DNA of 52,833 bases. It comes from Streptomyces sp. NRRL WC-3618. Lineage in GTDB: Bacteria > Actinomycetota > Actinomycetes > Streptomycetales > Streptomycetaceae. The stretch lies in NCBI RefSeq assembly GCF_001280005.1, contig NZ_LGDW01000447.1, positions 1-52,833 of the forward strand, read 5' to 3'. Shown one piece after another: positions 15,360 through 38,103 of the stretch; the stretch's first letter is position 1, and every line of letters begins with the position of its first letter. Both the position numbers and the translations under genes were made by a program. Under the pieces are notes generated by a model. That model worked only from the letters and a program-made list of their open reading frames with translations, did no database searches and had not been told where the DNA came from.

Positions 15360-15394
15360 GGGCCTGAGGTCCCTGTCAGGGGCCCGACCGGCCC
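15360..15394. promoter_or_regulatory. Tandem DosR-like boxes upstream of USP gene (14461-15303)
   Basis: Two 14-bp dyads 21 bp apart: GGGCC-TGAG-GTCCC (15360-15373) and GGCCC-GACC-GGCCC (15381-15394), each with one mismatch to GGGCC-N4-GGCCC. The first has the GTCCC half-site of the mycobacterial DosR box. Confidence 0.6.
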
Positions 15395-15430
15395 TGGCGT
15401 CGGGAGGCGGAAATCATGTGGCCTCGGTGG

Positions 15431-15730
15431 CTACGGATGGTGAGCGAGCTCTGACCACACCGGTCGTCCGGGTGCGGAGCGCAGTGCGGGACGGCCCGTA
15501 CCCACTGCACCCTCCACAGCCGGCGCGCCAGAGGGTGGCACCGGTCTCCCTCGACCCGGAGCAGGTGACCGCCGGCCTCGCCGTCCGCGAGCGGCCCCGT
15601 GTGTCCGACGCCGCAGCAGCCGGACGGCGAGACCGTCGACGGCGGCAGTGAGGACACACGCCACGCCTGCTGCCAGCACGAGCAGCACCGCGAACCGTTC
15701 CCAGAACTCCGGTGTCAGACTGGTACCCAC
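15431..15730 (-). CDS. Small membrane protein, unknown function
   Basis: 99 aa from GTG 15730, with GAGG 3 nt and GGGAGG further upstream. One transmembrane helix near the N-terminus (FAVLLVLAAGVACVLTAAV), preceded by LTPEFWERF and followed by an Arg-rich tail that then becomes low-complexity Pro/Gly/Arg. I do not recognise a family. The credible part is the first 45 residues; the tail may be misframed. It lies between the kinase gene and the USP gene on the same strand, and a weak pair of dyads (15801-15836) sits 71-106 bp upstream, which argues that it is a real, co-regulated gene. Confidence 0.5.
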   Translation of the reverse strand: MGTSLTPEFWERFAVLLVLAAGVACVLTAAVDGLAVRLLRRRTHGAARGRRGRRSPAPGRGRPVPPSGAPAVEGAVGTGRPALRSAPGRPVWSELAHHP

Positions 15731-15800
15731 TGTCCTCGCCCTCCCTGGCCTGCGTCATTCTCCGTGCTTCCAGCCAACTCCACTGCGCGGCAGAGCACTT

Positions 15801-15836
15801 GGGCCGAAGAGGTCGGAGAGGGGTCCGGAAAGGCCC
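15801..15836. promoter_or_regulatory. Weak tandem DosR-like boxes upstream of the small membrane protein gene
   Basis: GGGCC-GAAG-AGGTC (15801-15814) and GTCCG-GAAA-GGCCC (15823-15836), 22 bp apart. Each has one good half-site only; the spacing matches the other pairs. Confidence 0.3.
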
Positions 15837-16017
15837 TGTACACGGGGTCGCATCGGCCGGAGGGGCGGCAGGCGTGATGATGCGGGTCCCGGCGGCTGGA
15901 AGCGGCGGGAAGGACGCCACCCGCTTCTCCCGCGCGGCCCGCCGTGGCACACCGCACGGCGGCCACCACGCGGACCTGAGTGTTCCGCCGGAAGCGGCCG
16001 GAGTCGCCGTGCGCGCC

Positions 16018-17736: not shown

Positions 17737-17855
17737 GTGTACTCCTCCAGGTCCCCTCAACGGCCGGACGCCCACCGGTCCGATCATGTGCCACGTTAGT
17801 GCTCGGCCGGAGCGGGCGACAGCGAATCGGGCCGAGTGCCCGGTGTTTCCCGCCT

Positions 17856-17869
17856 GGGCCGATCAGCCC
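17856..17869. promoter_or_regulatory. DosR-like box upstream of the sensor kinase
   Basis: GGGCC-GATC-AGCCC, one mismatch to the dyad, 120 bp upstream of the kinase start. A weaker GGGCC half with GCCC lies at 17829-17841. Confidence 0.5.
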
Positions 17870-17981
17870 GGCGGAAGGGACCGGCAGCCCCTGCCCCCGA
17901 TGCCACGCCGGCGATCTGGCTGACGTGTCGGATCGACGGGGTGATCGGCGTGGTCAACAGGCTGAACGTCCGTGTCAAGCG

Positions 17982-18016
17982 GGGCCGTTCAGCCCTTCGA
18001 AGGGCCCAACGGGACC
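17982..18016. promoter_or_regulatory. Tandem DosR-like boxes upstream of adhE
   Basis: GGGCC-GTTC-AGCCC (17982-17995) and, 21 bp on, GGGCC-CAAC-GGGAC (18003-18016). The interval also contains the perfect palindrome GCCCTTCGAAGGGC (17992-18005). The first site is the exact reverse complement of the box at 29186-29199. Confidence 0.55.
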
Positions 18017-18135
18017 TGGGAGGGAGAACCCCTGACGGGAGACGCTGCTGGTGGGAGCGGTACCCACGCCTCGTGTTCCCGCTCCCTCCCGCGCCGCCTG
18101 CGGCGGCACCCTCTCGACGACGGAGGCTCGCCCCC

Positions 18136-20838
18136 ATGACCCGCCACGACGAACCCGGCGCGACCACCGGCCACGCCGCCGCGCCGTCCGACCTCGCCAT
18201 CGCGGTGGACCGGCTGGTGACGAACGGGCTCAAGGCACTCGCCGACTACGAGTCGCTCGACCAGGATCAGGTCGACCACATCGTGAAGAAGGCATCGGTC
18301 GCCGCCCTCGACCAGCACACCGCGCTCGCGGCCCTCGCGGTGGAGGAGACCGGACGAGGCGTCTTCGAGGACAAGGCCGCCAAGAACATGTTCGCCTGCG
18401 AGCACGTCACGCACGGCATGGGCCCGATGAAGACGGTCGGCGTCATCGCCCGCGACGACCTGGACGACCTGATCGAGGTGGCCGAGCCCGTGGGAGTGGT
18501 GTGCGCGATCACACCCGTCACCAACCCGACCTCCACCACCGTCTTCAAGGCGCTGATGGCGCTGAAAACCCGCAACCCGGTCGTGTTCGCCTTCCACCCG
18601 TCCGCCCAGCGCTGCTCCGCGCAGGCGGCCCGCATCGTGCGCGACGCGGCCGTCGCCGCGGGTGCGCCCGAACACTGTGTGCAGTGGATCGAGACCCCGT
18701 CCGTGGCGGCCACCGACACCCTGATGCGACACCCCGGCGTCTCGCTGATCCTCGCCACCGGCGGCAACGCCATGGTCAAGGCTGCCTATTCGGCCGGCAA
18801 GCCCGCCCTGGGCGTGGGCGCCGGCAACGTGCCCGCCTATGTCCATCGCAGCGCCGAGCTGCGCCGGGCCGTCAACGACCTGGTGCTGTCCAAGGCGTTC
18901 GACAACGGCATGATCTGCGCCTCCGAACAGGCCGTCATCCTGGACGACGAGATCTACGACGCCGCCCTGGCCGAATTCCGCACCCTGCACGCCCACTTGA
19001 CCACCGCCGAGGAGAAGTCGCAGCTCGAGACGTTCCTGTTCCCCGCGGCCCGGGCCGACTCCGGGGGCGCGGGCTGCGAACCCAAGGTCAACTCGGCGGC
19101 CGTCGGCCAGAGCCCGGCCTGGATCGCGCAGCAGGCGGGCTTCACCGTGCCCGACGGGACCTCGCTCATCCTCGTCGAGGCCGACCGGGTCGGCCCGGAC
19201 GAGCCGCTCACCCGCGAGAAGCTCTGCCCGGTCCTCGCCGTCCTGCGCGCCCACTCCGAGGAGCAGGGCTTCGACCTGGCCGCCGACATGGTCGCCTTCC
19301 ACGGACAGGGCCACAGCTCCGTCATCCACACCGAGGACACGGCACTGGCCGAGGCGTACGGCAAGCGGATGAAGACCGTGCGCGTCATCGTCAACGCCCC
19401 GTCGTCGCAGGGTGCGATCGGCGGCATCTACAACAGCTTGCTGCCGTCGCTGACGCTGGGCTGCGGATCCTGGGGCAGCACGTCGGTGTCCAACAACGTC
19501 TCCGTCGCCCAGCTGCTGAACGTCAAGCGTGTCACGGCGCGCCGCAACAACCTCCAGTGGTTCAAGGTCCCGCCGAAGATCTACTTCGAGCAGCAGTCCA
19601 TCCGCTACCTGGCCTCGATGCCGGACGTCCACCGCGTCACCGTCGTCACCGACGCGACGATGACCCGCCTCGGTCTCGTCGACCGGGTCGAGCGCGTGCT
19701 GCGACGGCGCCGGGAACCGGTCACCGTCCAGGTCATCGACAACGTGGAGCCCGAACCCAGCATCGACTCCGTCCGGCGCGGCGCCCGTCTCATGGGCGAC
19801 TTCCGCCCGGACACCATCATCGCCCTCGGCGGTGGCTCACCCATGGACGCGGCCAAGGTGATGTGGCTGCTGTACGAGCAGCAGGCCGAGGGCAAGGACG
19901 TCGACTTCGCCGACATGCGGCACAAGTTCTCCGACATCCGTAAGCGAGCCTTCCGCTTCCCGACCCTGGGCAGGCTGGCCCGCCTGGTGTGCATACCGAC
20001 GACTTCCGGAACCGGCGCCGAGGTGACCCCGTTCGCCGTCATCTCCGACCCCGCCACCGGCAAGAAATACCCGCTGGCCGACTACGCGCTCACCCCCAGC
20101 GTGGCCATCATCGACCCGCTGCTCACCGCCGCGCTGCCCCGCGCGCTGGCCGCGGACAGCGGCTTCGACGCCCTCACCCACGCCATCGAGGCGTATGTGT
20201 CGGTGTACGCCAACGACTTCACGGACGGCCTCGCCCTGCACGCGATCAGGCTGATCTTCGACAACATCGAGTCCGCCGTGAACGACCGGGCGGCCCGGCC
20301 CCGGGCCCAGGAGAAGATGCACAACGCGGGCACCCTCGCGGGCATGGCCTTCGGCAACGCCTTCCTCGGCATCGTCCACGCCATGTCCCACACCCTCGGC
20401 GCCACCTTCCACATCGCGCACGGCCGCACCAACGCCGTGCTCCTGCCGCACGTCATCCGCTACAACGGCACGGTCCCCACGAAGCTGACCGGCTGGCCCA
20501 AGTACGAGAGCTACCTGGCCCCCGAACGCTTCCAGGACATCGCCCGCACCCTCGGCCTGCCCGCCGCCACCCCTGCGGAGGGCGTCGAGTCGCTCGCCTC
20601 CGCGGTGGAGCGGCTCCGCGACACGCTGGGCATCGAGCCGACGTTCCAGGCCCTGGGCGTCGACGAGCGGTCCTTCCTGGCCGCCCTTCCCCAGCAGGCC
20701 CTCAACGCCTACGAGGACCAGTGCGCGCCCGCCAACCCGAGGATGCCCATGCTCGACGACATGCGCGAACTGATGCGTACGGCCTACTACGGGCGAACGC
20801 AGGCCCGTCCCGACGCCGAGCGGGCAACACAGCCGTAG
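18136..20838 (+). CDS. adhE: Bifunctional acetaldehyde-CoA/alcohol dehydrogenase AdhE
   Basis: 900 aa from ATG 18136 with CGGAGG 9 nt upstream; the upstream in-frame extension is rejected. The N-terminal half is a CoA-acylating aldehyde dehydrogenase (about 20-450) with catalytic C261 in DNGMICASEQAV and the ITPVTNPTSTT signature. The C-terminal half is an iron-dependent alcohol dehydrogenase (about 470-890) with NAD loop GGGSPMDAAK and metal-binding stretches DSGFDALTHAIEAYVS and HAMSHTLGATFHIAHGRTNA. It reduces acetyl-CoA to ethanol while regenerating two NAD+, a fermentative reaction. With PflB (34354-36612) making acetyl-CoA and formate, it offers a redox-balancing route when oxygen is lacking. 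Such enzymes are usual in facultative anaerobes and notable in an actinomycete. Confidence 0.95.
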   Translation: MTRHDEPGATTGHAAAPSDLAIAVDRLVTNGLKALADYESLDQDQVDHIVKKASVAALDQHTALAALAVEETGRGVFEDKAAKNMFACEHVTHGMGPMKTVGVIARDDLDDLIEVAEPVGVVCAITPVTNPTSTTVFKALMALKTRNPVVFAFHPSAQRCSAQAARIVRDAAVAAGAPEHCVQWIETPSVAATDTLMRHPGVSLILATGGNAMVKAAYSAGKPALGVGAGNVPAYVHRSAELRRAVNDLVLSKAFDNGMICASEQAVILDDEIYDAALAEFRTLHAHLTTAEEKSQLETFLFPAARADSGGAGCEPKVNSAAVGQSPAWIAQQAGFTVPDGTSLILVEADRVGPDEPLTREKLCPVLAVLRAHSEEQGFDLAADMVAFHGQGHSSVIHTEDTALAEAYGKRMKTVRVIVNAPSSQGAIGGIYNSLLPSLTLGCGSWGSTSVSNNVSVAQLLNVKRVTARRNNLQWFKVPPKIYFEQQSIRYLASMPDVHRVTVVTDATMTRLGLVDRVERVLRRRREPVTVQVIDNVEPEPSIDSVRRGARLMGDFRPDTIIALGGGSPMDAAKVMWLLYEQQAEGKDVDFADMRHKFSDIRKRAFRFPTLGRLARLVCIPTTSGTGAEVTPFAVISDPATGKKYPLADYALTPSVAIIDPLLTAALPRALAADSGFDALTHAIEAYVSVYANDFTDGLALHAIRLIFDNIESAVNDRAARPRAQEKMHNAGTLAGMAFGNAFLGIVHAMSHTLGATFHIAHGRTNAVLLPHVIRYNGTVPTKLTGWPKYESYLAPERFQDIARTLGLPAATPAEGVESLASAVERLRDTLGIEPTFQALGVDERSFLAALPQQALNAYEDQCAPANPRMPMLDDMRELMRTAYYGRTQARPDAERATQP

Positions 20839-20942
20839 TCCACGCGCCGCCGCCGCCGCGACCATGGGCCGGCGACAGCGGTGCCAGGGGGCACCCGGCC
20901 GTCGCCGCACGGCCGTCCGGCCCGGATCGAGCAGATCCCACA

Positions 20943-20978
20943 GGGCCGATGCGCCCGAGTGATGGGGCCCTTCGGCCC
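20943..20978. promoter_or_regulatory. Tandem DosR-like boxes upstream of the flavohemoprotein gene
   Basis: GGGCC-GATG-CGCCC (20943-20956) and a perfect GGGCC-CTTC-GGCCC (20965-20978), 22 bp apart and 124-159 bp before the start codon at 21102. Confidence 0.65.
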
Positions 20979-21101
20979 TGCTTCGGCCCGTAGGCCCCGA
21001 ACGGCGCCGGAACGCGGCCCCGCGCCTGCTACACAGAAGACGCCACCGCCCGAGGCGACGCGGCCGCCCTTCCCTTTCATCCACCCCTTCCGGGAGATTC
21101 C

Positions 21102-22316
21102 ATGCTGTCCGCAGAATCCGCCGCCCTTGTCCGGGCCACCCTGCCCGCCGTGGCCGGAGCGCTCGACGAGATCACCGCCCGCTTCTACGCCACGATGTTC
21201 CACGACCGGCCGGAGCTGCTCGACGGGATGTTCAACCGCGGCAACCAGGCCAGCGGCGCCCAACGCCAGGCTCTGGCCGCCTCGATCGCCGGTTTCGCCG
21301 GCGCGCTGCTGGAGAACCCCGGAGTGCGGCCGGACGCCCTGCTGTCCCGGATCGCCCACAAGCACGCCGCCGTGGGCGTCACCGACGACCAGTACACGAT
21401 CGTGCACAAGTACCTGTTCGGCGCGATCGCCGAGGTCCTCGGCGCCGCGGTCACGCCGGAGGTGGCGGCCGCCTGGGACGAGGTCTACTGGCTGATGGCC
21501 GGCGCGCTGATCAGCCGCGAGACCCTCCTCTACCAGGACGCGGGAGTCCAGCCCGGCGGGATCTGGCGGCCCTGGACGGTCGTCGAACGCCGTACCGAGA
21601 CCGCCGACGTGGTCTCCTTCCTGCTCCGCCCCGCCGATGGCGAACCGGCGCCACGGGCCCGGGCGGGCCAGTACGTGAGCGTCCGCGTGGCCATGGCCGA
21701 CGGAACGCACCAACTGCGCCAGTACAGCCTTTCCTCGGCACCGGGCGGAGAGCTGCGGCGGATCACCGTGAAGCGGGTCACGGGCGACGCCGACGGTCCG
21801 GACGGCGAGGTCTCCACCCTGCTGCACGGCACCGTTCGCGAGGGAGACGAACTGCTGCTGTCCGCGCCGTTCGGCGACGTCTTCCTCGACGACGGGGCCG
21901 ACGCCACCACCCCGCTCGTCCTGGTGTCGGCGGGCATCGGCTGCACCCCTATGACGGGAATCCTGGCCCACCTCGCGGCCCTCGGCTCGACCCGACAGGT
22001 ACTGGTCCTGCACGCCGACCGCTCCCCCGCCGACCACGCCCTGCGCGCCGAGACACACGACCTGGTCGCTCAACTGCCGGGCGCCCGCGCCGTCTTCTGG
22101 TACGAGCACCCTGGAGCGCAGGAACCCGACGCCCGCACCGGCCTGATGGACCCGAGCGGCGTCGGACTCCCGGACGGTGCCTCCGTGTTCCTTTGCGGGC
22201 CGCTGCCCTTCATGCGGGACGTGCGCGGCAGGCTGCTGAGCGCCGGGGTCCCCGCGCGGCGCATCCGTTACGAGGTCTTCGGTCCCGACCTGTGGCTGCC
22301 CGGCAGCGCGGTCTGA
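21102..22316 (+). CDS. hmp: Flavohemoprotein (nitric oxide dioxygenase)
   Basis: 404 aa, the usual length. A globin domain (about 1-140) with the proximal heme His in RIAHKHAAVG (H88) is followed by a ferredoxin-reductase-type FAD domain (about 152-260: RQYSLSSAP binds FAD) and an NAD domain (about 265-395: LVSAGIGCTPM, VFLCGPLPFM). It converts NO plus O2 to nitrate using NADH, protecting respiration and heme sensors from NO. GGGAG lies about 5 nt upstream of the ATG. It is the first gene of a short operon with the HPF-like gene 42 bp downstream. Its boxed promoter and its position after adhE fit a hypoxia/NO response like that sensed by DosS. Confidence 0.94.
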   Translation: MLSAESAALVRATLPAVAGALDEITARFYATMFHDRPELLDGMFNRGNQASGAQRQALAASIAGFAGALLENPGVRPDALLSRIAHKHAAVGVTDDQYTIVHKYLFGAIAEVLGAAVTPEVAAAWDEVYWLMAGALISRETLLYQDAGVQPGGIWRPWTVVERRTETADVVSFLLRPADGEPAPRARAGQYVSVRVAMADGTHQLRQYSLSSAPGGELRRITVKRVTGDADGPDGEVSTLLHGTVREGDELLLSAPFGDVFLDDGADATTPLVLVSAGIGCTPMTGILAHLAALGSTRQVLVLHADRSPADHALRAETHDLVAQLPGARAVFWYEHPGAQEPDARTGLMDPSGVGLPDGASVFLCGPLPFMRDVRGRLLSAGVPARRIRYEVFGPDLWLPGSAV

Positions 22317-22814: not shown

Positions 22815-22848
22815 GGGCCGTCCGGACCTGTCCGGTGCCCATCGGCCC
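22815..22848. promoter_or_regulatory. Tandem DosR-like boxes upstream of oleate hydratase
   Basis: GGGCC-GTCC-GGACC (22815-22828) and GTGCC-CATC-GGCCC (22835-22848), each one mismatch from the dyad, 20 bp apart. A separate 10-bp inverted repeat (22869-22878 / 22890-22899, TCGGGAACCG arms) lies closer to the start and could fold in the leader. Confidence 0.55.
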
Positions 22849-22927: not shown

Positions 22928-24499
22928 ATGGCGAAGGCATATCTGGTGGGTAGCGGCATAGCGGCACTGGCCGCGGCCACGTTCCTGATCCGCGACGGCG
23001 GCTTCGAGGGATCCGACATCCACCTGTTCGAGGAAGGCCGGACCATCGGCGGCAGCCTGGACGCGGGCGGCACGCCGGACGCCGGATACAGCATGCGCGG
23101 CGGACGGATGTTCGAGGCCGAGTTCCGCTGCACCTACGACCTGCTGTCCGCGATCCCCACCCTCGACGACCCCGCCGTCTCCGTGACCGAGGAGATCCTG
23201 GCCGGGCACGAGGACTTCGCCTGGGACGACATCGCCCGGCTCGTCGACGGGAACGGCAAGATCATCGACACGACCGCGATGGGATTCTCCGAGCGCGACC
23301 GGCTGGAACTGGTCCGCTGCCTGGCCACACCCGAGGGGCGCCTGGACGGCAAACGGATCACCGACTGCTTCGGCGAGCACTTCTTCACCACCAACTTCTG
23401 GTTCATGTGGTGCACCACGTTCGCCTTCCAGCCCTGGCACAGCGCGATCGAGTTCCGTCGCTACCTGAGGCGTTTCATCCATCTCTTCCCCGGCTTCGCC
23501 ACCATGTCGGGCATCCACCGCACCCGCTACAACCAGTACGACTCCATCGTTCGGCCCCTGACGGCCTGGCTCCGTGAGCGCGGCGTCACCCTGCACACGC
23601 GCTGCCGAGTCACCGACCTCGGCTTCGCCCCGGGCGTCCGAAGCGGCACGGTCGACACCCTCCACCTGAGCCGGAACGGCCACGACGAGAAGATGCCCGT
23701 CGCGCCCGAAGACCTGGTCATCGTCACCAACGGGTCCATGACGGACGCGTCCAGCCTCGGCTCCCACACCGCCGCGCCCGCGCCGGCCCCGCACCGCTCG
23801 GACGCCTGGCTGCTGTGGCACCGGCTCGCCCGCGGACGCGAGGACTTCGGCAACCCGGCCGCCTTCGACCACCACCGTAAGGAGTCCCGCTGGGAGTCGT
23901 TCACGGTCACCTCGAAGGACCCCGCCTTCCTCAGGGCCCTGGAGGAGTTCAGCGGCCGTCCGGCCGGCAAGGGCGGCCTCATGACCCTGACCGGCTCCCC
24001 CTGGCTGCTGACCCTCGTCGCCAACCGCCAGCCCGTCTACCGGGACCAGCCCGAGAACGTCGGCGTCTGGTGGGGCTACGGCCTGTTCCCCGACCGTGCG
24101 GGCAGCCACGTACCGAAGCCGATGACGATGTGCTCCGGCCGGGAGATCCTCGAAGAGGTCCTGCACCACCTCCCCTTCGACGAGCGGACGACGGCCCAGG
24201 TCCTGGAGACCTCCACCGTCGTGCCCTGCGTGATGCCGTACATCACCAGCCAGTTCCTGGCCCGTCGCCGCGAAGACCGGCCCGAGGTGGTCCCGAAGGG
24301 ATCGGTCAACCTCGCCTTCGTCGGGCAGTTCGCGGAGGTACCGGACGACGTCGTCTTCACCGTCGAGTACTCCGTGCGCACGGCCTGGACCGCGGTGGCA
24401 CAGCTTCTGAAGCTGGACAGGCACCCGCCGGAGGTCTACAAGGGCCACCACCATCCCCACGTCCTGGCCGCCGCGCTGGAGACCATGCACCGCCGGTAG
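22928..24499 (+). CDS. Oleate hydratase (MCRA family)
   Basis: 523 aa from ATG 22928 (GAGGAG 8 nt upstream); the preceding in-frame GTG is possible. FAD-binding motif GSGIAALAAATFLIRDG, with E-E-G and GGSLDAGG after it. MRGGRMFE corresponds to the RGGREME signature; the Glu that protonates the double bond is kept although the flanking residues differ. NFWFMWCTTFAFQPWHSA and YNQYDSIVRPL are also typical. The enzyme adds water to oleate to give 10-hydroxystearate and is FAD-dependent without net redox. In bacteria it is linked to fatty-acid detoxification and membrane stress. Its place in a dormancy island, with its own boxed promoter, suggests lipid remodelling during stress (inference). Confidence 0.9.
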   Translation: MAKAYLVGSGIAALAAATFLIRDGGFEGSDIHLFEEGRTIGGSLDAGGTPDAGYSMRGGRMFEAEFRCTYDLLSAIPTLDDPAVSVTEEILAGHEDFAWDDIARLVDGNGKIIDTTAMGFSERDRLELVRCLATPEGRLDGKRITDCFGEHFFTTNFWFMWCTTFAFQPWHSAIEFRRYLRRFIHLFPGFATMSGIHRTRYNQYDSIVRPLTAWLRERGVTLHTRCRVTDLGFAPGVRSGTVDTLHLSRNGHDEKMPVAPEDLVIVTNGSMTDASSLGSHTAAPAPAPHRSDAWLLWHRLARGREDFGNPAAFDHHRKESRWESFTVTSKDPAFLRALEEFSGRPAGKGGLMTLTGSPWLLTLVANRQPVYRDQPENVGVWWGYGLFPDRAGSHVPKPMTMCSGREILEEVLHHLPFDERTTAQVLETSTVVPCVMPYITSQFLARRREDRPEVVPKGSVNLAFVGQFAEVPDDVVFTVEYSVRTAWTAVAQLLKLDRHPPEVYKGHHHPHVLAAALETMHRR

Positions 24500-26410: not shown

Positions 26411-26447
26411 GCGCCGAACGGCCCTTGTGGCACGGGCCGTTCAGAAG
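26411..26447. promoter_or_regulatory. Tandem DosR-like boxes upstream of USP gene 25455-26285
   Basis: GCGCC-GAAC-GGCCC (26411-26424) and GGGCC-GTTC-AGAAG (26434-26447), 23 bp apart. Facing half-sites make a 9-bp inverted repeat (26416-26424 / 26434-26442) that mimics a terminator. The same arrangement occurs before the GAPDH gene at 33558-33594. Confidence 0.5.
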
Positions 26448-26958: not shown

Positions 26959-26995
26959 GGGACCGATGGCCGCCGGCCAGGGAGCCATCGGTCCC
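26959..26995. promoter_or_regulatory. Tandem DosR-like boxes upstream of PPOX gene 26441-26888
   Basis: GGGAC-CGAT-GGCCG (26959-26972) and GAGCC-ATCG-GTCCC (26982-26995), 23 bp apart and 71-107 bp before the start. Facing halves form 12-bp complementary arms (26959-26970 / 26984-26995), so the region could also act as a terminator for the XRE-PPOX gene ending at 27020. Confidence 0.45.
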
Positions 26996-27885: not shown

Positions 27886-27899
27886 GGGCCGTCCGGCCC
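27886..27899. promoter_or_regulatory. Perfect DosR-like box upstream of XRE-PPOX gene
   Basis: GGGCC-GTCC-GGCCC, perfect in both half-sites, centred about 50 bp upstream of the start point predicted from the TATATA at 27849-27854 on the minus strand. The 27695-28047 interval holds no gene. Confidence 0.6.
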
Positions 27900-28047: not shown

Positions 28048-29061
28048 TCAGCCGAGCCCTCGCGGGTGGGCGTCCGGCGCCCCGGCGACCTCCCGCAGCA
28101 CCCGCGCGACTGCGCGGCGAGGTGTGGCCGGACCGTCCGGACCGTAACCGAGGCGTATGAGCAGCTGCGGATGCGTGCCGCCGTCACAGGCGTCGACCAG
28201 GCGGTCCCGCAGGTCGTCCCACTCCGCCGCCTGATCCAGCACGGAAGCGCGCAGGCCGTACGCCGTCGCGACGAGCCAGAGGCGCTCGAGGGCCTGGCCG
28301 GCGCGCAGCCGGTCGACTCGGCGATCGTGTTCGGTCGTCAGCAGGGCAATGGACGGGTCCGGTTCGAAGGGCCGTGCGGTGAGTCGTTCCGGATGCCGCT
28401 GCGCGGTGAAGTCTCGCAGTGGGATCCGCTCCCGGGCGTCCTGCGGGCCCAGCGCCGTGCGCGGCAGACCTGTGTCGGGCATCGGCTCCAGATCGCGGTG
28501 CACCCGTTGACGGCCCTCGGCCGCCCGGTCGGCGTCAAGGCGGTTGCGCCGTTCGGCCTCCGTCGTCAGGTGCAGGAGACGAGTCGTCTCGGCCGCTCCG
28601 CAGAAGCGCAGTGCCGCACCTTCCGCACGAGCCACCGTGCTGAGGTCGTCGCGCACGGCCACAGGGAGCGTCCGGTCCGAGAACGGGAAGCGGCTGCTGT
28701 GCCTGCGCCAGATCGCCTCGAAGAGGTCGGCGCCGCGCTCCCCCTCCTGGTCGGCCACGAGCTCGGCGAGCCGCACGGTGGCGAGCAGGCCGGGGTCGTC
28801 ATGGCGGGGCAGCAGCCGGGTGACGGGTGACCAGCCGAAGTGGGCCAGGGCGACCCGCAGGTTGAACACGCAGGCCCCCACCGAAAGGAGCGCGGCACGG
28901 CCCGTCGGGTCGACGTGCCGCACGCCCCGGCCGGGAGCGGCCCGCACCTGGAACGTGAGCGTGTCGGAGTCCAGCCCGAAACGCCACGGCTGGATGTTGT
29001 GGATCGAGGGCGCGCCGACCGCGGCGGAGACGCAGGTCTCCACCAGCGCGGCGTCGAACAC
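28048..29061 (-). CDS. Acg-like nitroreductase-fold protein
   Basis: About 337 aa from GTG 29061 (GGGGAG 6 nt upstream); the frame extends to 29280 but that part is low-complexity. VETCVSAAVGAPSIHNIQPWRF is the FMN-binding entry of the family and HVDPTGRAALLSVGACVFNLRVAL follows, as in Rv2032 (Acg) and Rv3131, both DosR-regulated. The protein is longer than classical nitroreductases, with two half-barrels (about 1-150 and 160-330). Acg proteins bind FMN but lack known NAD(P)H activity and may sequester flavin during dormancy. It shares a 260-bp divergent promoter with the membrane-protein gene at 29322, with two dyads in the middle. Confidence 0.88.
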   Translation of the reverse strand: MFDAALVETCVSAAVGAPSIHNIQPWRFGLDSDTLTFQVRAAPGRGVRHVDPTGRAALLSVGACVFNLRVALAHFGWSPVTRLLPRHDDPGLLATVRLAELVADQEGERGADLFEAIWRRHSSRFPFSDRTLPVAVRDDLSTVARAEGAALRFCGAAETTRLLHLTTEAERRNRLDADRAAEGRQRVHRDLEPMPDTGLPRTALGPQDARERIPLRDFTAQRHPERLTARPFEPDPSIALLTTEHDRRVDRLRAGQALERLWLVATAYGLRASVLDQAAEWDDLRDRLVDACDGGTHPQLLIRLGYGPDGPATPRRAVARVLREVAGAPDAHPRGLG

Positions 29062-29168
29062 TGTGCTCTCCCCGTACCAGGCCTCGGACGGCAGGTGCCG
29101 TGGGCACGAGCATGGTTGCCTCGCCGCTCCGTCGGCAGGGGCCGTACGTCCTGTACCGGGGGTCGGTC

Positions 29169-29199
29169 GGGCCTCACGGCCCCTTGGGCTGAACGGCCC
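29169..29199. promoter_or_regulatory. Tandem DosR-like boxes in the nitroreductase / membrane protein divergent promoter
   Basis: A perfect GGGCC-TCAC-GGCCC (29169-29182) and GGGCT-GAAC-GGCCC (29186-29199), 17 bp apart, 108-138 bp from the nitroreductase start and 123-153 bp from the start at 29322. Confidence 0.65.
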
Positions 29200-29321: not shown

Positions 29322-29909
29322 ATGACCACGAGCGAGAACGCGAGGAAGAGGAAATGGCTGTGGCGGTGGCGGAACAACCCGCTACGGCGGCGCGACGACA
29401 TCGTCGAGGCGTGGATCGTGCTGGCGGTGTGGGCCGTCGTCGCCGTGGGTGGCACGGTCTCGGGACTGATGACGGCCCATGCCGCACTTGACGTGTTCGC
29501 ACATCAACGAGCCGACCGGCAGACGGTCCGAGCCGTCCTCCTGGACGACGTGCGGCGCGCCACCGTCGCCCGGGGCGGCAGCACCGACCGCAGGATGACG
29601 TCCGTGAGCTGGATGACGCCCGAGGGCGCGACCCGTACCGGCCGAACGCTGGTGGACAACGGCCTCAAAGCCGGAGCACACGTCCCGGTCTGGCAGGACG
29701 GCCAAGGCCGTCTCACCGCCGCGCCGCCGACCACCGAGGAGGCGACGATCGAGTCGGGCTCCCTCGGCATCGCGGCCGCGGCGTCCTTCGCCGGCCTGGC
29801 TTTCGGCACCGGAGCGGTCGTCCGGTGGCGGCTCGAACGGCGCCGTATCGACCAGTGGGGCCTGGAATGGGAGCTGGTGGGACCGCAGTGGGGCCACAAG
29901 ACCGGCTGA
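29322..29909 (+). CDS. Rv1733c-like two-helix membrane protein
   Basis: 195 aa from ATG 29322, with GAGGAGG 9 nt upstream. A basic N-terminus (ARKRKWLWRWRNNPLRRRDD) is followed by TM1 (about 30-52, IVEAWIVLAVWAVVAVGGTVSG), an extracytoplasmic domain of about 90 aa (VRAVLLDDVRRA, VSWMTPEGATRTGRTLVDNGLKAGAHVPVWQD), TM2 (about 148-168) and a short cytoplasmic tail. The LRRRDDIVEAW entry and the two-TM layout match the Rv1733c family, a DosR-regulon antigen of unknown role. It lies upstream of a USP-like gene in the same direction (100 bp), probably one operon. Confidence 0.85.
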   Translation: MTTSENARKRKWLWRWRNNPLRRRDDIVEAWIVLAVWAVVAVGGTVSGLMTAHAALDVFAHQRADRQTVRAVLLDDVRRATVARGGSTDRRMTSVSWMTPEGATRTGRTLVDNGLKAGAHVPVWQDGQGRLTAAPPTTEEATIESGSLGIAAAASFAGLAFGTGAVVRWRLERRRIDQWGLEWELVGPQWGHKTG

Positions 29910-32038: not shown

Positions 32039-32051
32039 GGTCGTTTCCTCC

Positions 32052-32395: not shown

Positions 32396-32409
32396 GGGCC
32401 GGTCGGCCC
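32396..32409. promoter_or_regulatory. Perfect DosR-like box upstream of the CBS-flavodoxin unit
   Basis: GGGCC-GGTC-GGCCC, extending to a 16-bp near-palindrome (32395-32410), 84 bp upstream of the first start codon at 32312 and just past the GAPDH stop codon. Confidence 0.6.
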
Positions 32410-32445
32410 CCGCCTGCGCCGTCACCGGGAGCTGTCGGCCCCGCG

Positions 32446-33459
32446 TCAGTCGTCCGCCACGAGGGCCGTGAGGTCCAGGAGGCGGTTGGTGTAGCCCCAC
32501 TCGTTGTCGTACCAGCCGAAGACCTTGACCAGGGTTCCGTTGGCCTGGGTCAGCGCGGGGTCGAAGACGCAGGACGAGGGGTCGCCGATGACGTCGCGGG
32601 AGACGATCGGGGCCTTCGAGACACGCAGGATCCCGTTCAGCGGGCCGTCCGCGGCGGCCTGGAACGCGGCGTTGACCTCGTCCGCGCTCGCCTCCCGGGC
32701 AAGGACCACCGCAAGGTCGGTGAGCGAGCCGTCCTCCACCGGGACCCGGACGGCGATCCCGTCCAGTGCGCCGGCCAGCTCCGGCACCACCAGGCCCACC
32801 GCGCGGGCGGCGCCGGTGCTCGTGGGAATGATGCTCAGAGCTGCCGAGCGGGCCCTGCGCAGGTCCTTGTGCGGGCTGTCGAGCAGGGACTGGTCGTTGG
32901 TGTAGCCGTGGATCGTGGTCATGACACCGCGTTCGACGCCGAAGGCGTCGTCGAGCACCTTCACCATGGGGGCGACGCAGTTGGTGGTGCAGGAAGCGGC
33001 GGAGATGATCCGGTCGCGGTGCCGGTCGTAGGCGCGGTCGTTGACACCCAACACGATGGTGGCATCCACGTCCTTGCCGGGCGCCGACAACAGCACGGTG
33101 TGCGCTCCGCCCTTGAGATGCAGAGCGGCGGAGTCCCTGTCCCGGAAGCGGCCGGTGGACTCGATCACGATGTCGGCCCCGTAGTCGGACCAGTGCAGGG
33201 CGGCCGGATCACGTTCGGCGGTGACGGCGATGCGTCGGCCGTCGACCGTGATCGAGCTGTCGTCGTGCTCGACGTCGCGTCCGATGCGGCCGAAGGTGGA
33301 GTCGTACTCCAGCAGGTGGGCCAGGATGGCGGGTGATGTGATGTCGTTGATGGCGACCACTTCGACGTCCTGGACGCCCTCCTCGGCGCGGTCGAGGGCG
33401 GCTCGCAGATAGGTGCGGCCGATGCGGCCGAAGCCGTTGATGCCCACGCGTACGGTCAT
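32446..33459 (-). CDS. gap: Glyceraldehyde-3-phosphate dehydrogenase
   Basis: 337 aa, full length. Rossmann motif VGINGFGRIGRTYLRA, catalytic Cys in SAASCTTNCVAP, His in GVMTTIHGYTNDQ, and WYDNEWGY near the end. It oxidises G3P with NAD+ in glycolysis. GAPDH genes in Streptomyces usually sit with pgk and tpi; this one stands alone in the stress island between the CBS-flavodoxin unit and pflA, so it is probably a condition-specific paralogue supplying pyruvate for PflB. The start ATG has GAAAGGA upstream. Tandem dyads lie 99-135 bp upstream. Confidence 0.95.
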   Translation of the reverse strand: MTVRVGINGFGRIGRTYLRAALDRAEEGVQDVEVVAINDITSPAILAHLLEYDSTFGRIGRDVEHDDSSITVDGRRIAVTAERDPAALHWSDYGADIVIESTGRFRDRDSAALHLKGGAHTVLLSAPGKDVDATIVLGVNDRAYDRHRDRIISAASCTTNCVAPMVKVLDDAFGVERGVMTTIHGYTNDQSLLDSPHKDLRRARSAALSIIPTSTGAARAVGLVVPELAGALDGIAVRVPVEDGSLTDLAVVLAREASADEVNAAFQAAADGPLNGILRVSKAPIVSRDVIGDPSSCVFDPALTQANGTLVKVFGWYDNEWGYTNRLLDLTALVADD

Positions 33460-33557
33460 GGCGGTGAGTTCCTTTCAAGGTGGGGGCGGTGCCTGACACC
33501 ACTCACTGTGGCCCGCCCGCACCGGCCGGCGACGGATGCCGAAGGTCCACGACCACG

Positions 33558-33594
33558 GAGCCGAACGGCCCTGATCCCAGGGGCCGTTGGGCCA
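33558..33594. promoter_or_regulatory. Tandem DosR-like boxes upstream of GAPDH gene
   Basis: GAGCC-GAAC-GGCCC (33558-33571) and GGGCC-GTTG-GGCCA (33581-33594), each one mismatch, 23 bp apart. Facing halves give an AACGGCCC/GGGCCGTT hairpin-like repeat, as at 26411-26447. Confidence 0.6.
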
Positions 33595-33619
33595 AGAACG
33601 GCACGCCGGACACACGGCC

Positions 33620-34357
33620 TCAGTAGACCTTCAGCCCCTGTCCACGGAACTGATCCCGCACGCGCTCGACCAGTTCGAGCTCCGGAGTGGGCGTGTCCTT
33701 CAGCGGGAAGGGGAGCTCGAGGGCCCCGTACTTCGCGGCCCCGAGTTTGTGGAACGGCAGCACGTCCACCCGCTCCACCGCTTCGAGCCCCGCGACGAAG
33801 CCGGCCAGTGCGTCTATGGCCGACGGATCATCGGTCCAACCCGGAACGAGTACGTGGCGGATCCACATCGGGACGCCGAGACGGTCGAGACGCGTGGCGA
33901 AGTTGAGGGTGGGGGCAAGGCTGCCGCCGGTCAGCTTCCGGTAAGTGCCCACGTCGAAGGCCTTGATGTCCAGCAGGACCAGGTCGGTGGCGGCGAGGAG
34001 CTCGTCGGTGGCGCGGGCGCCGAGGAAGCCGGAGGTGTCCAGGGCGGTGTGCAGACCGGCTTCCCCACAGCGGCGCAGCACCTCTCCGGTGAAGGCCGGC
34101 TGGAGCAGCGGCTCTCCTCCGGTGATCGTCACGCCGCCACCGGCGCTGGTGATGAAGGCCCGGTACTTCTCGATCTCCGCCATCACCTCGTCCACCGTCG
34201 TCTCCCGGCCGTCCCGCATGTGCCAGGTGTCGGGGTTGGCGCAGTACAGGCAGCGCAGGGGGCAGCCGCTCACGAAGAGGACGAACCGGGTCCCGGGACC
34301 GTCCACGCCCGTGGACAGGTCCCAGGAGTGGATCCGGCCGGTCGTCACGGCCGTCAC
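33620..34357 (-). CDS. pflA: Pyruvate formate-lyase activating enzyme (radical SAM)
   Basis: 245 aa. The radical-SAM cluster motif is in [14 protein letters not shown] (C-x3-C-x2-C), with [15 protein letters not shown] binding SAM and VLLDIKAFD further on. It generates a 5'-deoxyadenosyl radical that abstracts hydrogen from the glycine of PflB. The GTG start overlaps the pflB stop by four bases (GTGA), giving translational coupling; it is therefore second in the pflBA operon. The protein needs an intact [4Fe-4S] cluster and reducing conditions, so it works only when oxygen is scarce. Confidence 0.95.
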
Positions 34358-36612
34358 AGCGTTCCGTGGAAGGTACGGCTGATCACGTCGAGCTGCTGCT
34401 CCCGCGTCAGGCGGACGAAGTTGACCGCGTATCCGGAGACCCGGATGGTCAGCTCCGGGTACTTCTCGGGGTGTTCCATGGCGTCCTCCAGCACCTCCCG
34501 GTTCAGCACATTGACGTTCATGTGGAAACCGCCGGAGGACATGTAGGCGTCGAGGATGCCCACCAGGTGTCCGGCACGCTCCTGTGGGGCGTGTCCGAGC
34601 CCTTCCGGGGTGATGGTGGTGGTCAGTGAGATGCCGTCGCGGGCCTGCTCGTACGGAAGCTTGGCGACGGAGAGCGCGGAGGCGGCCACGCCGTGCCGGT
34701 CACGGCCGTTCATCGGGTTGGCACCCGGGGCGAAGGGCTGGCCGGCCCGGCGCCCGTCGGGGGTGTTGCCGGTGTGCTTGCCGTAGACGACGTTGGAGGT
34801 GATGGTCAGCACCGACTGGGTGTGTTCGGCGTCCCGGTAGGTGGGGTGTCGGCGGACCTTGGCCATGAAGGACTCCACCAGGCCGACGGCCAGGGAGTCG
34901 GCGCGGTCGTCGTTGTTGCCGTACGCCGGGAACTCGCCCTCGGTCACGAAGTCGACGGCCAGGCCTGTGGCGTCCCGGATGACCTTGACCCGGGCGTACC
35001 TGACGGCGGACAGGCTGTCGGCGGCGACGGAGAGCCCGGCGACGCCGCAGGCCATGAACCGGTGCACGGGATGGTCGTGCAGCGCCATCTCCAGGCGCTC
35101 GTAGGCGTACTTGTCGTGCATGTAGTGGATGACGTTGAGGGTGTTGACGTACGTCCGCGCCAGCCAGTCCAGGACACGGTCGTACGCCGCCGACAGCTCC
35201 TCGAAGTCCAGGTACTCGCCCGTCAGCGCGGGCATCTCGGGGGTGACCTGGTCGCCCGTCATCTCGTCACGGCCGCCGTTGACGGCGTAGAGCAGTGCCT
35301 TGGCCAGGTTGACGCGGGCGCCGAAGAACTGCATCTCCTTGCCGACCGCCATGGCGGAGACACAGCAGGCGATGGCGGTGTCGTCGCCGTTGCGGGGGCG
35401 GATGAGCTCGTCGGACTCGTACTGGACGGCGCTGGTGTCGATGGAGACCTGGGCGCAGAACTCCTTGAAGCCGGCGGGCAGCCGCGGCGACCACAGCACG
35501 GTCAGGTTGGGTTCGGGGGCGGGGCCGAGGTTGTAGAGGGTCTGGAGGAAACGGAAGGAGGTGCGGGTGACCAGTGTGCGGCCGTCGTCTCCGCCACCAC
35601 CGATCGACTCGGTCACCCAGGTCGGGTCGCCGGAGAACAGGGCGTCGTACTCGGGGGTGCGCAGGAACCGGACGATCCGCAGCTTGATCACGAAGTCGTC
35701 GATCAGTTCCTGGGCGCGGGACTCGTCGATGGTTCCCGCGTCCAGGTCCCGCTGGAGGTAGACGTCGAGGAAGGTCGACGTGCGGCCCAGCGACATCGCG
35801 GCGCCGTTCTGCTCCTTCACCGCGGCGAGGTAGCCGAGGTAGAGCCACTGCACGGCCTCGTGCGCGGTGACCGCGGGACGGGACACGTCACAGCCGTAGG
35901 TCGCCGCCATCCGGGTCAACTCACCCAACGCCTTTACCTGCTCGGCGAGTTCTTCCCGGTCACGGATGACGTGCTCGCTGGATGGCCGGCCGTCCAGCAG
36001 AGCCTTCTCCGCCCTCTTGGCCTCGATCAGCCGGTCGGTGCCGTAGAGGGCGACACGCCGGTAGTCACCGATGATCCGGCCGCGGCCGTAGGCGTCCGGC
36101 AGCCCGGTGATGATGCCGACCTTGCGCGCGGTGCGCATGGTGGGCGTGTAGGCGTCGAAGACACCGTCGTTGTGGGTCTTGCGGTAGGTCCCGAAGACCT
36201 TGGTCACAAACGGGTCGGCCTCATAGCCGTACGCCTTCAGACTGTTCTCCACCATCCGCAGACCGCCGTTGGGCATGATCGCCCGCTTCAGGGGGGCGTC
36301 CGTCTGGAGACCGACGACCAGCTCGCGGTCCCGGTCGATCCAGCCGGGCTCGTGCGAGGTGATCGTCGACGGCGTCGCGGTGTCCACGTCGAGGATGCCG
36401 CGCGCCCGCTCCTCGGGGAACAACGCACCGACCCTCTCCCAGACCGCCCGGGTGCGGGCCGTCGCACCGGTGAGGAAGGAGGCGTCACCCTCGTACGGGG
36501 TGTAGTTGGCCTGGATGAAGTCGCGCACGTCGATCAGCTCAGGCCAGCGGGCCCCGGCGAAGCCGCGCCAGGCCTCGGTGGCCCGGTCGCCGACTGTCAC
36601 GGTTGCGGTCAT
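34354..36612 (-). CDS. pflB: Pyruvate formate-lyase (glycyl radical enzyme)
   Basis: 752 aa from ATG 36612 (AGGAGAGGAA upstream; frame open to 36672). The twin active-site cysteines are in [12 protein letters not shown], and the radical glycine G727 is in [10 protein letters not shown], 25 residues from the end, as in known PFLs. It splits pyruvate plus CoA into acetyl-CoA and formate. The radical form is destroyed by oxygen, so expression in a normally aerobic actinomycete implies a low-oxygen role. Together with AdhE (same island) it completes a pyruvate-to-ethanol-plus-formate route. No formate channel or formate-hydrogen lyase is visible here. The divergent gene is a cyclic-nucleotide-binding protein. 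Confidence 0.96.
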
Positions 36613-36821
36613 CGCCGTTCCTCTCCTCGGTTCGTGTCCTGCCCTTCGATGCTCGTCGTTCGTGATCGTCACGGGGAGGGCCGGACAGCGCCCGCGGGCG
36701 GGCCGTCCGGCCCCGGCCCGAGAGCCGGACGGCCCGGCTGCGCCCCGGGCCCAGGTGTCGGCCGGCCGCGAGATCCGGACGGATCAGGGTGCTAGACCGA
36801 CCGTGCACGACCGACCCATCG

Positions 36822-36856
36822 GGACCAAAAGACCCGATAGCTGGACCATATGGCCC
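36822..36856. promoter_or_regulatory. Tandem DosR-like boxes in the pflB / cNMP-protein divergent promoter
   Basis: GGACC-AAAA-GACCC (36822-36835), within the longer dyad ATCGGG...CCCGAT (36818-36838), and GGACC-ATAT-GGCCC (36843-36856), 21 bp apart. They have AT-rich spacers, as in the mycobacterial box. The 36613-36924 interval contains no other gene. Confidence 0.6.
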
Positions 36857-36924
36857 ATGGTCCCCGTCCCGGGCCGAGCGGACGCTGGCCTTACACGTTC
36901 GAAACCCCGCCAGGGAGGCCCGTC

Positions 36925-37388
36925 ATGCTCGCCAACCCCACCCCCGACATGGTGCGCTCGCTGTCCGTCGAACACCGCGAGCGGCTCATGCGCTTCGCCC
37001 GCGAGGTCTCCGTCCCCCAGGGGACACGTCTGTTCGAGGAGGGCGGACACGCCGACCGCTTCTGGATCATCCGCACCGGCAGGGTCGATCTCGACATGCA
37101 CGTGCCGGGCCGTCGGTCGGCCGTCATCGAGAGCCTCGGCCACAACGAACTGGTCGGCTGGTCCTGGCTGTCCCCCCGCACGCCTGGCAGATGGGCGCCG
37201 AGGCGACGACACCGGTGCGGGCCTACGAGTTCGACGCCACGGCCGTCCGGTCCATGTGCCAGGACGACCCGGCCCTCGGTCATGAGGTGAGCCAGTGGGT
37301 GGGCGAGGTCCTCGCCCACCGTCTGCGCTCCGCCAGGACCCGCCTCCTCGACCTGTACGCCCCTCACGGCTCCGGCAGCCTCATCTGA
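36925..37388 (+). pseudogene. Cyclic-nucleotide-binding-domain protein, frameshifted in a C6 tract
   Basis: ATG 36925 follows GGGAGG with 7-nt spacing. The first 84 residues or so (VEHRERLMRFAREVSVPQGT, LFEEGGHADRFWIIRTGRVDLDMH, IESLGHNELVGWSWL) are the front of a Crp/Fnr-type cNMP-binding barrel. At the C6 run 37172-37177 the frame breaks; one extra C restores PPHAWQMGAEATTPVRAYEF and DPALGHEVSQWVGEVLAHRL to the stop at 37386-37388, for about 154 aa in all. The restored protein is a stand-alone sensor domain without a DNA-binding HTH. The homopolymer makes either a sequencing error or phase-variable slippage possible. Followed 42 bp later by the CBS-BON gene. Confidence 0.75.
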
Positions 37389-37430
37389 ATCCGACCCGGC
37401 CGGTCCCGAACAGTTACCGAAGGAGAGGCC

Positions 37431-38090
37431 ATGCACGGCACTCCGTACATCGTCAGCGATGTCATGACCCCCACGGTCGCCGCGATCGGCCGTGGAGCGG
37501 CCTTCAAGGAGATCGTGCAGCTGATGCAGGACTGGAAGGTCAGCGCCCTGCCCGTCATCGAGGGCGAGGGCCGGGTCGTCGGTGTCGTCTCCGAGGCGGA
37601 TCTCCTGCCCAAGGAGGAGTTCCGCGACAGTGACCCCGACCGGTACACGCAGCTGCGCCGTCTGTCCGACCTGGCGAAGGCCGGGGCCGTGACCGCGGGC
37701 GAGCTCATGACCTCCCCCGCCCTCACCGTGCACCCGGACACGACGCTCGCCCAGGCCGCCCGGACCATGGCCCGCGAGAAGGTCAAGCGGCTTCCCGTGG
37801 TCGACGCCGTGGGCCTGCTGCAAGGCGTCGTCAGCCGGGCCGACCTCCTCAAGGTCTTCCTCCGCACCGACGAGGAGATCGCCGAGGAGGTTCGGCGCGA
37901 GGTCGTGTCCCACCTGTTCCCCACCCCGGACTCACAGGTGCGCGTGGAAGTTCTGGACGGCGTCGTGAAGCTCGCCGGCCAGGTCCGGGACACCTCCTTG
38001 GTGCCGGTGGCGGCACGGCTGGTGCGCGCGGTGGAAGGGGTCGTGGATGTGGCATTCGACCTCACACGGATGCCGCCCGCGCAGAAGTAG
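37431..38090 (+). CDS. CBS-domain pair with C-terminal BON domain
   Basis: 219 aa, ATG with AAGGAGAGG 4-8 nt upstream. CBS1 (about 8-60: IVSDVMTPTVAAI, PVIEGEGRVVGVVSEADLL), CBS2 (about 90-145: ELMTSPALTVHPD, PVVDAVGLLQGVVSRADLL) and BON (about 155-215: VRVEVLDGVVKLAGQVRD). Same layout as the protein at 31301-32038, with which it shares the KVFLRTDEEI / QVFLRPDQEI bridge, so the two are paralogues. It probably senses adenylate energy charge (family knowledge). It follows the cNMP-binding gene, and the pair may report nucleotide signals to fermentation control. Confidence 0.92.
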   Translation: MHGTPYIVSDVMTPTVAAIGRGAAFKEIVQLMQDWKVSALPVIEGEGRVVGVVSEADLLPKEEFRDSDPDRYTQLRRLSDLAKAGAVTAGELMTSPALTVHPDTTLAQAARTMAREKVKRLPVVDAVGLLQGVVSRADLLKVFLRTDEEIAEEVRREVVSHLFPTPDSQVRVEVLDGVVKLAGQVRDTSLVPVAARLVRAVEGVVDVAFDLTRMPPAQK

Positions 38091-38103
38091 GGCAGATCGG
38101 CCC
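38090..38103. promoter_or_regulatory. DosR-like box just before the response-regulator remnant
   Basis: GGGCA-GATC-GGCCC, one mismatch, starting on the last base of the CBS-BON stop codon. Probably the former promoter box of the lost regulator gene (inference). Confidence 0.45.

What the first reader, a model, noticed from the sequence alone, without database searches (positions are those of the whole stretch)
15360..38103. Recurrent tandem 14-bp dyad GGGCC-N4-GGCCC before nearly every transcription unit of the island
Reading all intergenic regions of the island gives perfect copies at 20965-20978, 27886-27899, 29169-29182 and 32396-32409. Copies with one or two mismatches lie at 15360, 15381, 17856, 17982, 20943, 22815, 22835, 24517, 26411, 26959, 26982, 29186, 33558, 33581, 36822, 36843 and 38090. 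In most promoters they come as pairs whose starts are 17-23 bp apart (about two helical turns), 60-240 bp before the start codon. Half-sites drift between GGGCC and GGGAC or GTCCC, so the architecture equals the core of the M. tuberculosis DosR box (GGGAC-TWWA-GTCCC). This points to one DosR/DevR-type regulator controlling about 13 units. Several pairs look like terminators only because facing half-sites are complementary.
Basis: partly seen in the sequence, partly recalled or inferred. Interest (0 to 1): 0.9.

Follow-up and report, generated by a model that had tools for sequence, protein, structure and literature searches.

The report
OsdR dormancy-regulator boxes in Streptomyces island
The repeated short palindromes look like the already known DNA docking sites of OsdR, the Streptomyces counterpart of the tuberculosis dormancy switch DosR, here set in evenly spaced pairs in front of a block of low-oxygen genes.

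Summary
A weight matrix built from published Streptomyces coelicolor OsdR sites, not from this window, finds 17 sites of at least 11 bits in the 23.7-kb island; a 400-kb sample of the same genome predicts 0.7. Sixteen of 17 are intergenic with my gene starts. Sites come in pairs 20-23 bp apart, mostly one strong and one weak. The same spacing dominates around osdR in 17 other genomes (26 pairs, 1.4 expected per bin) and is absent from the background sample. The motif equals the published OsdR consensus AGGGCCGATCGGCCCT, kin to the DevR/DosR box. The genome encodes one close OsdR homologue, on another contig, with its own box, and two DevS/OsdK-type kinases, one in this island. Island genes match DosR-regulon classes (USPs, Acg, Rv1733c, CBS) plus fermentation genes (AdhE, PFL). 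Inferred mechanism: low O2 or NO, OsdK, OsdR~P, strong site, then cooperative weak site. This is a new member of a known regulon; the spacing rule, the doubled island and the osdR remnant are the fresh parts. Binding was not tested.

The parts
15360..15394 (.). Box pair 15360 (9.9) + 15381 (15.3), 21 bp apart, before USP gene 14461-15303 (-63/-84)
14461..15303 (-). Universal stress protein (two Usp stretches)
   Evidence: Pfam PF00582
16018..17736 (-). OsdK/DevS-type kinase GAF-GAF-HisKA_3-HATPase; haem-pocket His and Tyr equivalents kept (roles recalled)
   Evidence: start GTG inferred from the RBS
17856..17869 (.). Box 11.7, -126 of kinase
17982..18015 (.). Box pair 17982 (16.1) + 18002 (9.1), 20 bp, before AdhE (-147/-127)
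18136..20838 (+). AdhE, bifunctional acetaldehyde-CoA/alcohol dehydrogenase (start inferred from the RBS)
   Evidence: NF010378, 1312.9 bits, cutoff 951
20910..20978 (.). Boxes 20910 (12.8), 20943 (11.7), 20965 (16.8); last two 22 bp apart, before flavohaemoglobin
21102..22316 (+). Flavohaemoglobin-like protein (Globin + FAD + NAD domains)
   Evidence: 347 bits, below the NCBIfam cutoff of 432
22815..22848 (.). Box pair 22815 (16.1) + 22835 (9.8), 20 bp, before oleate-hydratase-family gene (-106/-86)
22928..24499 (+). MCRA / oleate hydratase family (start inferred)
   Evidence: PF06100
24517..24552 (.). Box pair 24517 (13.3) + 24539 (9.8), 22 bp, before pyridoxamine-oxidase-like gene 24566-25090
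26411..26424 (.). Box 17.0 between a PPOX-like part and a USP part that read as one open frame, apparently through a frameshift
26959..26995 (.). Weak, possibly decayed pair 26959/26982 (4.1/3.8, 23 bp) before the PPOX-like gene
27886..27899 (.). Perfect box 16.6 before HTH-PPOX gene 27020-27763 (-129); lies in a 73-bp stretch 82% identical to a C118 stretch that holds a 15.4-bit box
29139..29199 (.). Boxes 29139 (12.0), 29160 (9.3), 29186 (11.1) in the divergent promoter of Acg and Rv1733c-family genes
28048..29061 (-). Acg (Rv3131) family FMN oxidoreductase (start inferred)
   Evidence: NF047509 284.5 bits (cutoff 199); best PDB 2ymv
29322..29909 (+). Rv1733c family protein
   Evidence: NF050032 175.2 bits (cutoff 80)
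32396..32409 (.). Perfect box 17.2, -90 of the likely unit 32312-30787 (small ORF, CBS-BON, flavodoxin)
33558..33594 (.). Box pair 33558 (14.0) + 33581 (7.2), 23 bp, before GAPDH; both boxes kept in the paralogous promoter on C118 (88% over 171 columns)
32446..33459 (-). GAPDH
36678..36735 (.).
33620..36672 (-). Pyruvate formate-lyase (34354-36672) and its activating enzyme (33620-34357)
   Evidence: TIGR01255 1137 bits, cutoff 994
38090..38103 (.). Box 18.4 overlapping the stop of the CBS-BON gene and just upstream of the osdR remnant
38111..38224 (+). Remnant of an osdR gene (two pieces matching the C118 osdR at 91% and 95%, with C118 bases missing between them)

Best explanation
The palindromes are OsdR (DevR/DosR-type) operators. 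Shown by sequence: the motif matches the published OsdR box; it is concentrated before the units of this island and of paralogous or orthologous islands; sites are tandem with a 20-23 bp centre-to-centre spacing; the genome encodes a close OsdR homologue with its own box and two DevS/OsdK-type kinases. Inferred from homology: low oxygen, NO or redox change switches the GAF-type kinase on; it phosphorylates OsdR; OsdR~P dimers bind the strong site and recruit a second dimer to the weaker site two helical turns away on the same face; the pair activates transcription of stress, nitroreductase-like, CBS and fermentation genes. The regulator acts in trans from another contig; this island keeps one kinase and only a fragment of osdR.
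For: Published consensus AGGGCCGATCGGCCCT with gel-shift tests (PMC5069765, sections 6, 7, 12, 16 and passages). Independent matrix: 17 sites >=11 bits in the island, 0.71 expected; 16 of 17 intergenic with my gene set; no shuffled matrix of 300 reaches 17. Pairs at 19-24 bp: 10 in the window against 0.62 per 6-bp bin; 26 in 20 osdR stretches of 17 genomes against 1.44; 16 in ten PFL loci against 1.25; 0 in 400 kb of own background. OsdR homologue: DevR 3c3w E 4e-74, with the KTVKN stretch and the DevR Asp54/Thr82 equivalents in the alignment; box of 19.0 bits about 90 bp upstream; box >=14 bits before osdR in 19 of 29 relatives. Kinase GAF matches solved DevS GAF domains, E 4e-42 to 5e-41, and 2vzw, E 3e-47. 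Target families. Orthologous promoters with a site >=11: 32 of 61 in six Streptomyces PFL loci and 59 of 128 in osdR stretches, against 12 of 1160 background segments. DevR in M. tuberculosis binds tandem strong/weak sites cooperatively (PMC3029386 and PMC4973870 passages).
Against: No binding or expression data for this organism. Five of the 21 listed sites score poorly. 5 of 21 adopted genes have no site >=11 within 400 bp. PFL loci of more diverged Streptomyces/Kitasatospora have sites in only 1 of 14 promoters, and other actinobacteria in 4 of 21; PFL itself has one in 2 of 6 close Streptomyces loci; in osdR stretches the kinase has one in 2 of 13, CBS2 in 2 of 14 and CRP in 3 of 12. Ten of 30 osdR-like upstream regions lack a site >=11, the C144 paralogue among them. 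A loose genome-wide pair pattern in 61 genomes did not stand out from its control.
Confidence: 0.94

Rival explanations
1. RNA hairpins: the palindromes are intrinsic terminators or attenuators in GC-rich intergenic regions.
For: GGGCC-N4-GGCCC can form a 5-bp stem with a 4-base loop, and paired sites are mutually complementary.
Against: No T run longer than 2 in the 12 bases after, and no A run longer than 2 in the 12 bases before, any of the 16 sites checked; the terminator scan of 18500-38110 (14461-18499 was not scanned) finds 2 matches, fewer than in shuffles (3.6), neither on a site >=11 bits; sites sit before genes, with fixed spacing and a sequence-specific core.
Confidence: 0.02
2. 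Another NarL/LuxR-type regulator, such as the 62%-identical paralogue on C144, binds these boxes instead of or beside the C118 OsdR.
For: C144:82688 encodes a second DevR-like response regulator; PMC5069765 states that OsdK also partners with SCO3818 in S. coelicolor.
Against: In this genome the C118 copy has a near-consensus box upstream; the C144 copy has none scoring 8 or more in 400 bp.
Confidence: 0.12
3. Composition artefact of 70% GC DNA or a dispersed repeat family.
For: Half-sites are pure G/C; the exact pattern occurs 112 times in the genome, and its reversed control is commoner still, 213.
Against: Controls: order-3 Markov sequence, own-genome background, rest of the window, shuffled palindromic matrices. 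Flanks of the 16 printed boxes differ from promoter to promoter.
Confidence: 0.01

Closest known systems
OsdKR regulon of Streptomyces coelicolor (SCO0203/SCO0204; core SCO0167-SCO0219), PMC5069765
   Same: Same 16-bp palindrome; same gene classes (USPs, nitroreductase family, PPOX, ADH, CRP-like); regulator with its own box about 80-90 bp upstream.
   Different: Here osdR is on another contig from this island; a kinase paralogue and an osdR remnant sit in the island; AdhE and a PFL/activase pair are under boxes. Urem Table 1 lists no PFL; SCO0206 PFL was reported as co-expressed with osdR in S. lividans, where the activase was listed as a putative pseudogene fragment (PMC6302529 passages).
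DevR/DosR dormancy regulon of Mycobacterium tuberculosis
   Same: Dyad geometry; tandem primary/secondary sites with cooperative binding (PMC3029386, PMC4973870, PMC7018068 passages); USP genes (stated in PMC5069765) and Acg, Rv1733c and CBS families (their place in the DosR regulon is recalled).
   Different: G-NN-C core instead of the AT centre given for DosR in the finding (GGGAC-TWWA-GTCCC); fermentation genes AdhE and PFL under boxes.

Membership tests
OsdR/DevR regulon | Upstream box matching AGGGCCGATCGGCCCT | tested here: met
   17 sites >=11 bits with a matrix from published sites; 0.71 expected
OsdR/DevR regulon | Sites upstream of genes rather than in coding sequence | tested here: met
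   16 of 17 intergenic with my gene set, 15 of 17 if 25455-26888 is one gene; Fisher p 9e-13 for 16 of 17
OsdR/DevR regulon | DevR/OsdR-type response regulator in the genome | tested here: met
   C118:131046-131747, RR + GerE, DevR 3c3w E 4e-74
OsdR/DevR regulon | GAF-GAF-HisKA_3 kinase of DevS/DosT type | tested here: met
   window 16018-17736 and C118:118276-119997, 86% identical; haem binding not tested
OsdR/DevR regulon | Box before osdR itself (autoregulation) | tested here: met
   19.0 bits at L004:15951; 19 of 29 relatives >=14 bits
OsdR/DevR regulon | osdR and osdK in one operon, as in S. coelicolor | tested here: not met
   osdR is about 11 kb from one kinase on C118 and on another contig from the other; the two are adjacent in L007. 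I do not take this as a defining trait of the regulon
OsdR/DevR regulon | Typical target families (USP, Acg, Rv1733c, CBS) | tested here: met
   the CBS protein is only a distant match to Rv2626c
OsdR/DevR regulon | Tandem strong/weak site architecture | tested here: met
OsdR/DevR regulon | Binding by phosphorylated regulator; induction by hypoxia/NO | not testable with these tools
   needs footprinting and expression data

The most novel reading that the evidence does not exclude
OsdR regulons of Streptomyces (and perhaps other actinobacteria) use a fixed promoter grammar: one strong and one weak 16-bp box with centres 20-23 bp apart (triples at 22+22 bp), so that cooperative loading on one helix face, not single-box affinity, sets the response. 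In this genome two diverged copies of the island, two kinases and one intact close regulator form one switch that puts a PFL/AdhE fermentation route under oxygen control, a possible part of the answer to the Streptomyces 'anaerobic paradox'.
Probability: 0.45. Interest if true: 0.55.

Novelty: new member of a known kind. Interest (0 to 1): 0.36.

Why it matters
It gives a bounded, testable regulon in which many promoters share one architecture, and a quantitative spacing rule (20-23 bp) that could sharpen genome-wide prediction of OsdR/DosR targets, where single-box scoring in GC-rich DNA is noisy. It places pyruvate formate-lyase and AdhE in the predicted OsdR regulon, which bears on why Streptomyces, unable to grow anaerobically, carry anaerobic enzymes (the 'anaerobic paradox' named in PMC5069765).

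Tried and rejected
Terminator/attenuator reading: rejected. Rfam: no family at gathering score in the window. Composition artefact: rejected. Loose pair pattern over 61 genomes: too unspecific; own-genome counts 5/5 against control 3/4, and in many genomes the control is as high or higher; uninformative. A transplanted promoter module at 33452-33621 (88% identical to a C118 stretch in front of a SulP transporter gene): an ancestral neighbourhood with later gene loss explains it more simply (in L006 SulP pieces lie beside the PFL activase). No consistent order of strong and weak box relative to the gene: counted by hand, the strong one is distal at 4 of 7 window pairs, the PFL triple apart. Published DevR inter-site distances were not found: papers searched, passages read; the 2008 source paper is not held. 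An OsdR spacing rule did not turn up: PMC5069765 holds no 'tandem' or 'spac', and of the other 18 papers listed I saw passages of two (PMC6302529; PMC11472566, otherwise unused), for the rest only the listing. PFL with OsdR: searches; found as co-expression in PMC6302529.

Own errors and dropped rows: AdhE was translated one base off (query from 18137); corrected to 18136. In one search the row 'USPx' was dropped because my coordinates were out of frame, and matches that began beyond residue 45 of the query, lay within about 360 bp of a stretch's end or overlapped a better match were not counted. The ten PFL loci (L006-L012, L014, L016, L018, of 80 fetched) were picked after one search had shown sites in most of them; L013, L015, L017, L023, L026-L028, L030 and L034 had no site >=11 there. 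The 20 osdR stretches come from 20 of the 68 places listed, mostly from the top. A note says 18 genomes for these; the right number is 17.
Full report
Setting. The window is contig C446 of a 9.34-Mb, 499-contig genome, 70% GC. The genus is not named; the six closest named matches of its PFL protein are Streptomyces (84-89% identity, which may leave out very near genomes), so Streptomyces is inferred. The island 14461-38110 holds, in order: a USP; a GAF-GAF-HisKA_3 kinase; AdhE; a flavohaemoglobin-like protein; a 132-aa protein; an oleate-hydratase-family protein; a PPOX-like gene; a frame joining USP and PPOX-like parts; an HTH-PPOX protein; an Acg-family oxidoreductase; an Rv1733c-family protein; a USP; a flavodoxin; a CBS-BON protein; a small ORF; GAPDH; PFL activase and PFL; a CRP-like gene; a second CBS-BON protein.

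Is the motif there? Yes. The plain pattern with up to one mismatch gives 37 matches against 16.3 in shuffles. To avoid circularity I built a matrix from 26 sequences of Table 1 of Urem et al. 2016 (PMC5069765; outline, sections 6, 7, 12, 16 and passages seen), with no window sequence in it. It finds 18 sites >=11 bits in the window, 3.8 expected from an order-3 Markov model (4.6 in a second run). Against 20 stretches of 20 kb from the same genome (12 sites in 400 kb), the island's 17 compare with 0.71 expected, and the rest of the window's 1 with 0.87. Those stretches are from contigs that the listing showed to be long, at preset positions. Sixteen of 17 are intergenic with my gene set (3,537 bp against 20,113 coding; p about 9e-13); 15 of 17 if 25455-26888 counts as one gene. 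Several starts were moved downstream of the longest ORF on the strength of RBS or domain position, which puts some boxes outside the genes. Of 300 column-shuffled palindromic matrices none reached 17 (largest 7).

Pairs. In the window 10 pairs (one member >=11, the other >=6) are 19-24 bp apart, against 0.62 per 6-bp bin at 25-120 bp. In 20 stretches around osdR genes of 17 other genomes, the 26 pairs in that bin are all at 20-22 bp, against 1.44 per bin; in ten PFL loci 16 against 1.25; in 400 kb of own background none. Of 53 pairs listed (window, C118, ten PFL loci, 20 osdR stretches), 2 have both sites at 14 bits or more; most join a stronger and a weaker box. The thresholds favour mixed pairs, so this asymmetry is suggestive, not proven. 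Mycobacterial DevR binds tandem high- and low-affinity sites cooperatively (PMC3029386 and PMC4973870, passages), which is the natural reading here.

The regulator. A search with the C118 protein lists 105 matches in the genome, but one stands out as DevR-like together with its own box: C118:131046-131747, best solved relative DevR (3c3w, E 4e-74), with the KTVKN stretch of the recognition helix and residues equivalent to DevR Asp54 and Thr82 in the alignment (Asp54 as phosphorylation site is in PMC3029386, the cooperativity role of Thr82 in PMC4973870, the helix role is recalled). A 19.0-bit box lies about 90 bp upstream. In 29 relatives, 19 have a box >=14 bits (20 have >=11) within 400 bp upstream of osdR; the 62% paralogue on C144 has none. 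A match at E<=1e-85 is present in 40 of 61 genomes of the genus, own genome included, and 22 of these have two or three.

The sensor. The kinase 16018-17736 matches solved DevS GAF domains (E 4e-42 to 5e-41) and 2vzw (E 3e-47; recalled as DosT), and keeps the HPPM...LYLT stretch holding the haem ligand His and the distal Tyr (recalled as DevS His149/Tyr171). A second kinase, 86% identical, lies on C118 about 11 kb from osdR and keeps the same stretch.

Two islands. C118 carries diverged copies of parts of this island: kinase (86% DNA), PPOX-like gene (83%), CRP-like gene (82%), a promoter stretch with the same box pair (88% over 171 columns), a 73-bp stretch around box 27886 (82%), and the osdR to which the remnant at 38111-38224 corresponds (91% and 95%). 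In the window the CRP-like gene and the PPOX-like gene each appear frameshifted relative to C118; in a 499-contig draft this may be decay or assembly error.

Conservation. A site >=11 occurs within about 340 bp upstream in 32 of 61 orthologous genes in six Streptomyces PFL loci (adhE 5 of 5, osdR 4 of 4, USP 8 of 13, PFL 2 of 6, kinase 0 of 3) and 59 of 128 in osdR stretches (osdR 17 of 21, Rv1733c family 3 of 4, USP 14 of 31, kinase 2 of 13, CBS2 2 of 14), against 12 of 1160 background segments. It is weak elsewhere: 4 of 21 in other actinobacteria and 1 of 14 in Streptomyces/Kitasatospora with a diverged PFL.

Mechanism. Shown by sequence: operators, spacing, regulator, sensor, targets. Inferred: signal, phosphorylation, cooperative loading and activation, by homology to OsdKR (gel shifts, and lower expression of several USP and nitrate reductase genes in an osdR mutant, PMC5069765). 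Not shown: any binding or expression in this strain.

Verdict. The system is known; this is a new and richly marked member. The spacing rule across genomes, the doubled island with two kinases and one intact close regulator, and the PFL/AdhE promoters are the parts worth following.

Noticed in passing
38111-38224: Remnant of an osdR gene: two short pieces nearly identical to the C118 osdR, with C118 bases missing between them, just downstream of an 18.4-bit box.
   Followed up: partly
25455-26888: One open frame joins a PPOX-like domain and USP domains; comparison with C118 suggests a frameshift about residue 122, with a 17-bit box lying in the junction.
   Followed up: partly
36850-37290: CRP-like gene appears frameshifted near 37174 relative to the C118 copy.
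   Followed up: partly
33452-33621: Promoter region 88% identical to a C118 stretch in front of a SulP transporter gene, although the gene it serves here is GAPDH.
   Followed up: partly
36822-36856: Two dyads with AT centres (GGACC-AAAA-GACCC and GGACC-ATAT-GGCCC), 21 bp apart, score poorly with the OsdR matrix but have the right spacing, before the CRP-like gene; a terminator-like match overlaps them.
   Followed up: no
22359-22757: 132-aa protein after the flavohaemoglobin with no Pfam match above cutoff and no NCBIfam match.
   Followed up: partly
38481-41570 and 42092-44992: Two large BTAD/NB-ARC/TPR (SARP-like) regulators directly after the island.
   Followed up: no
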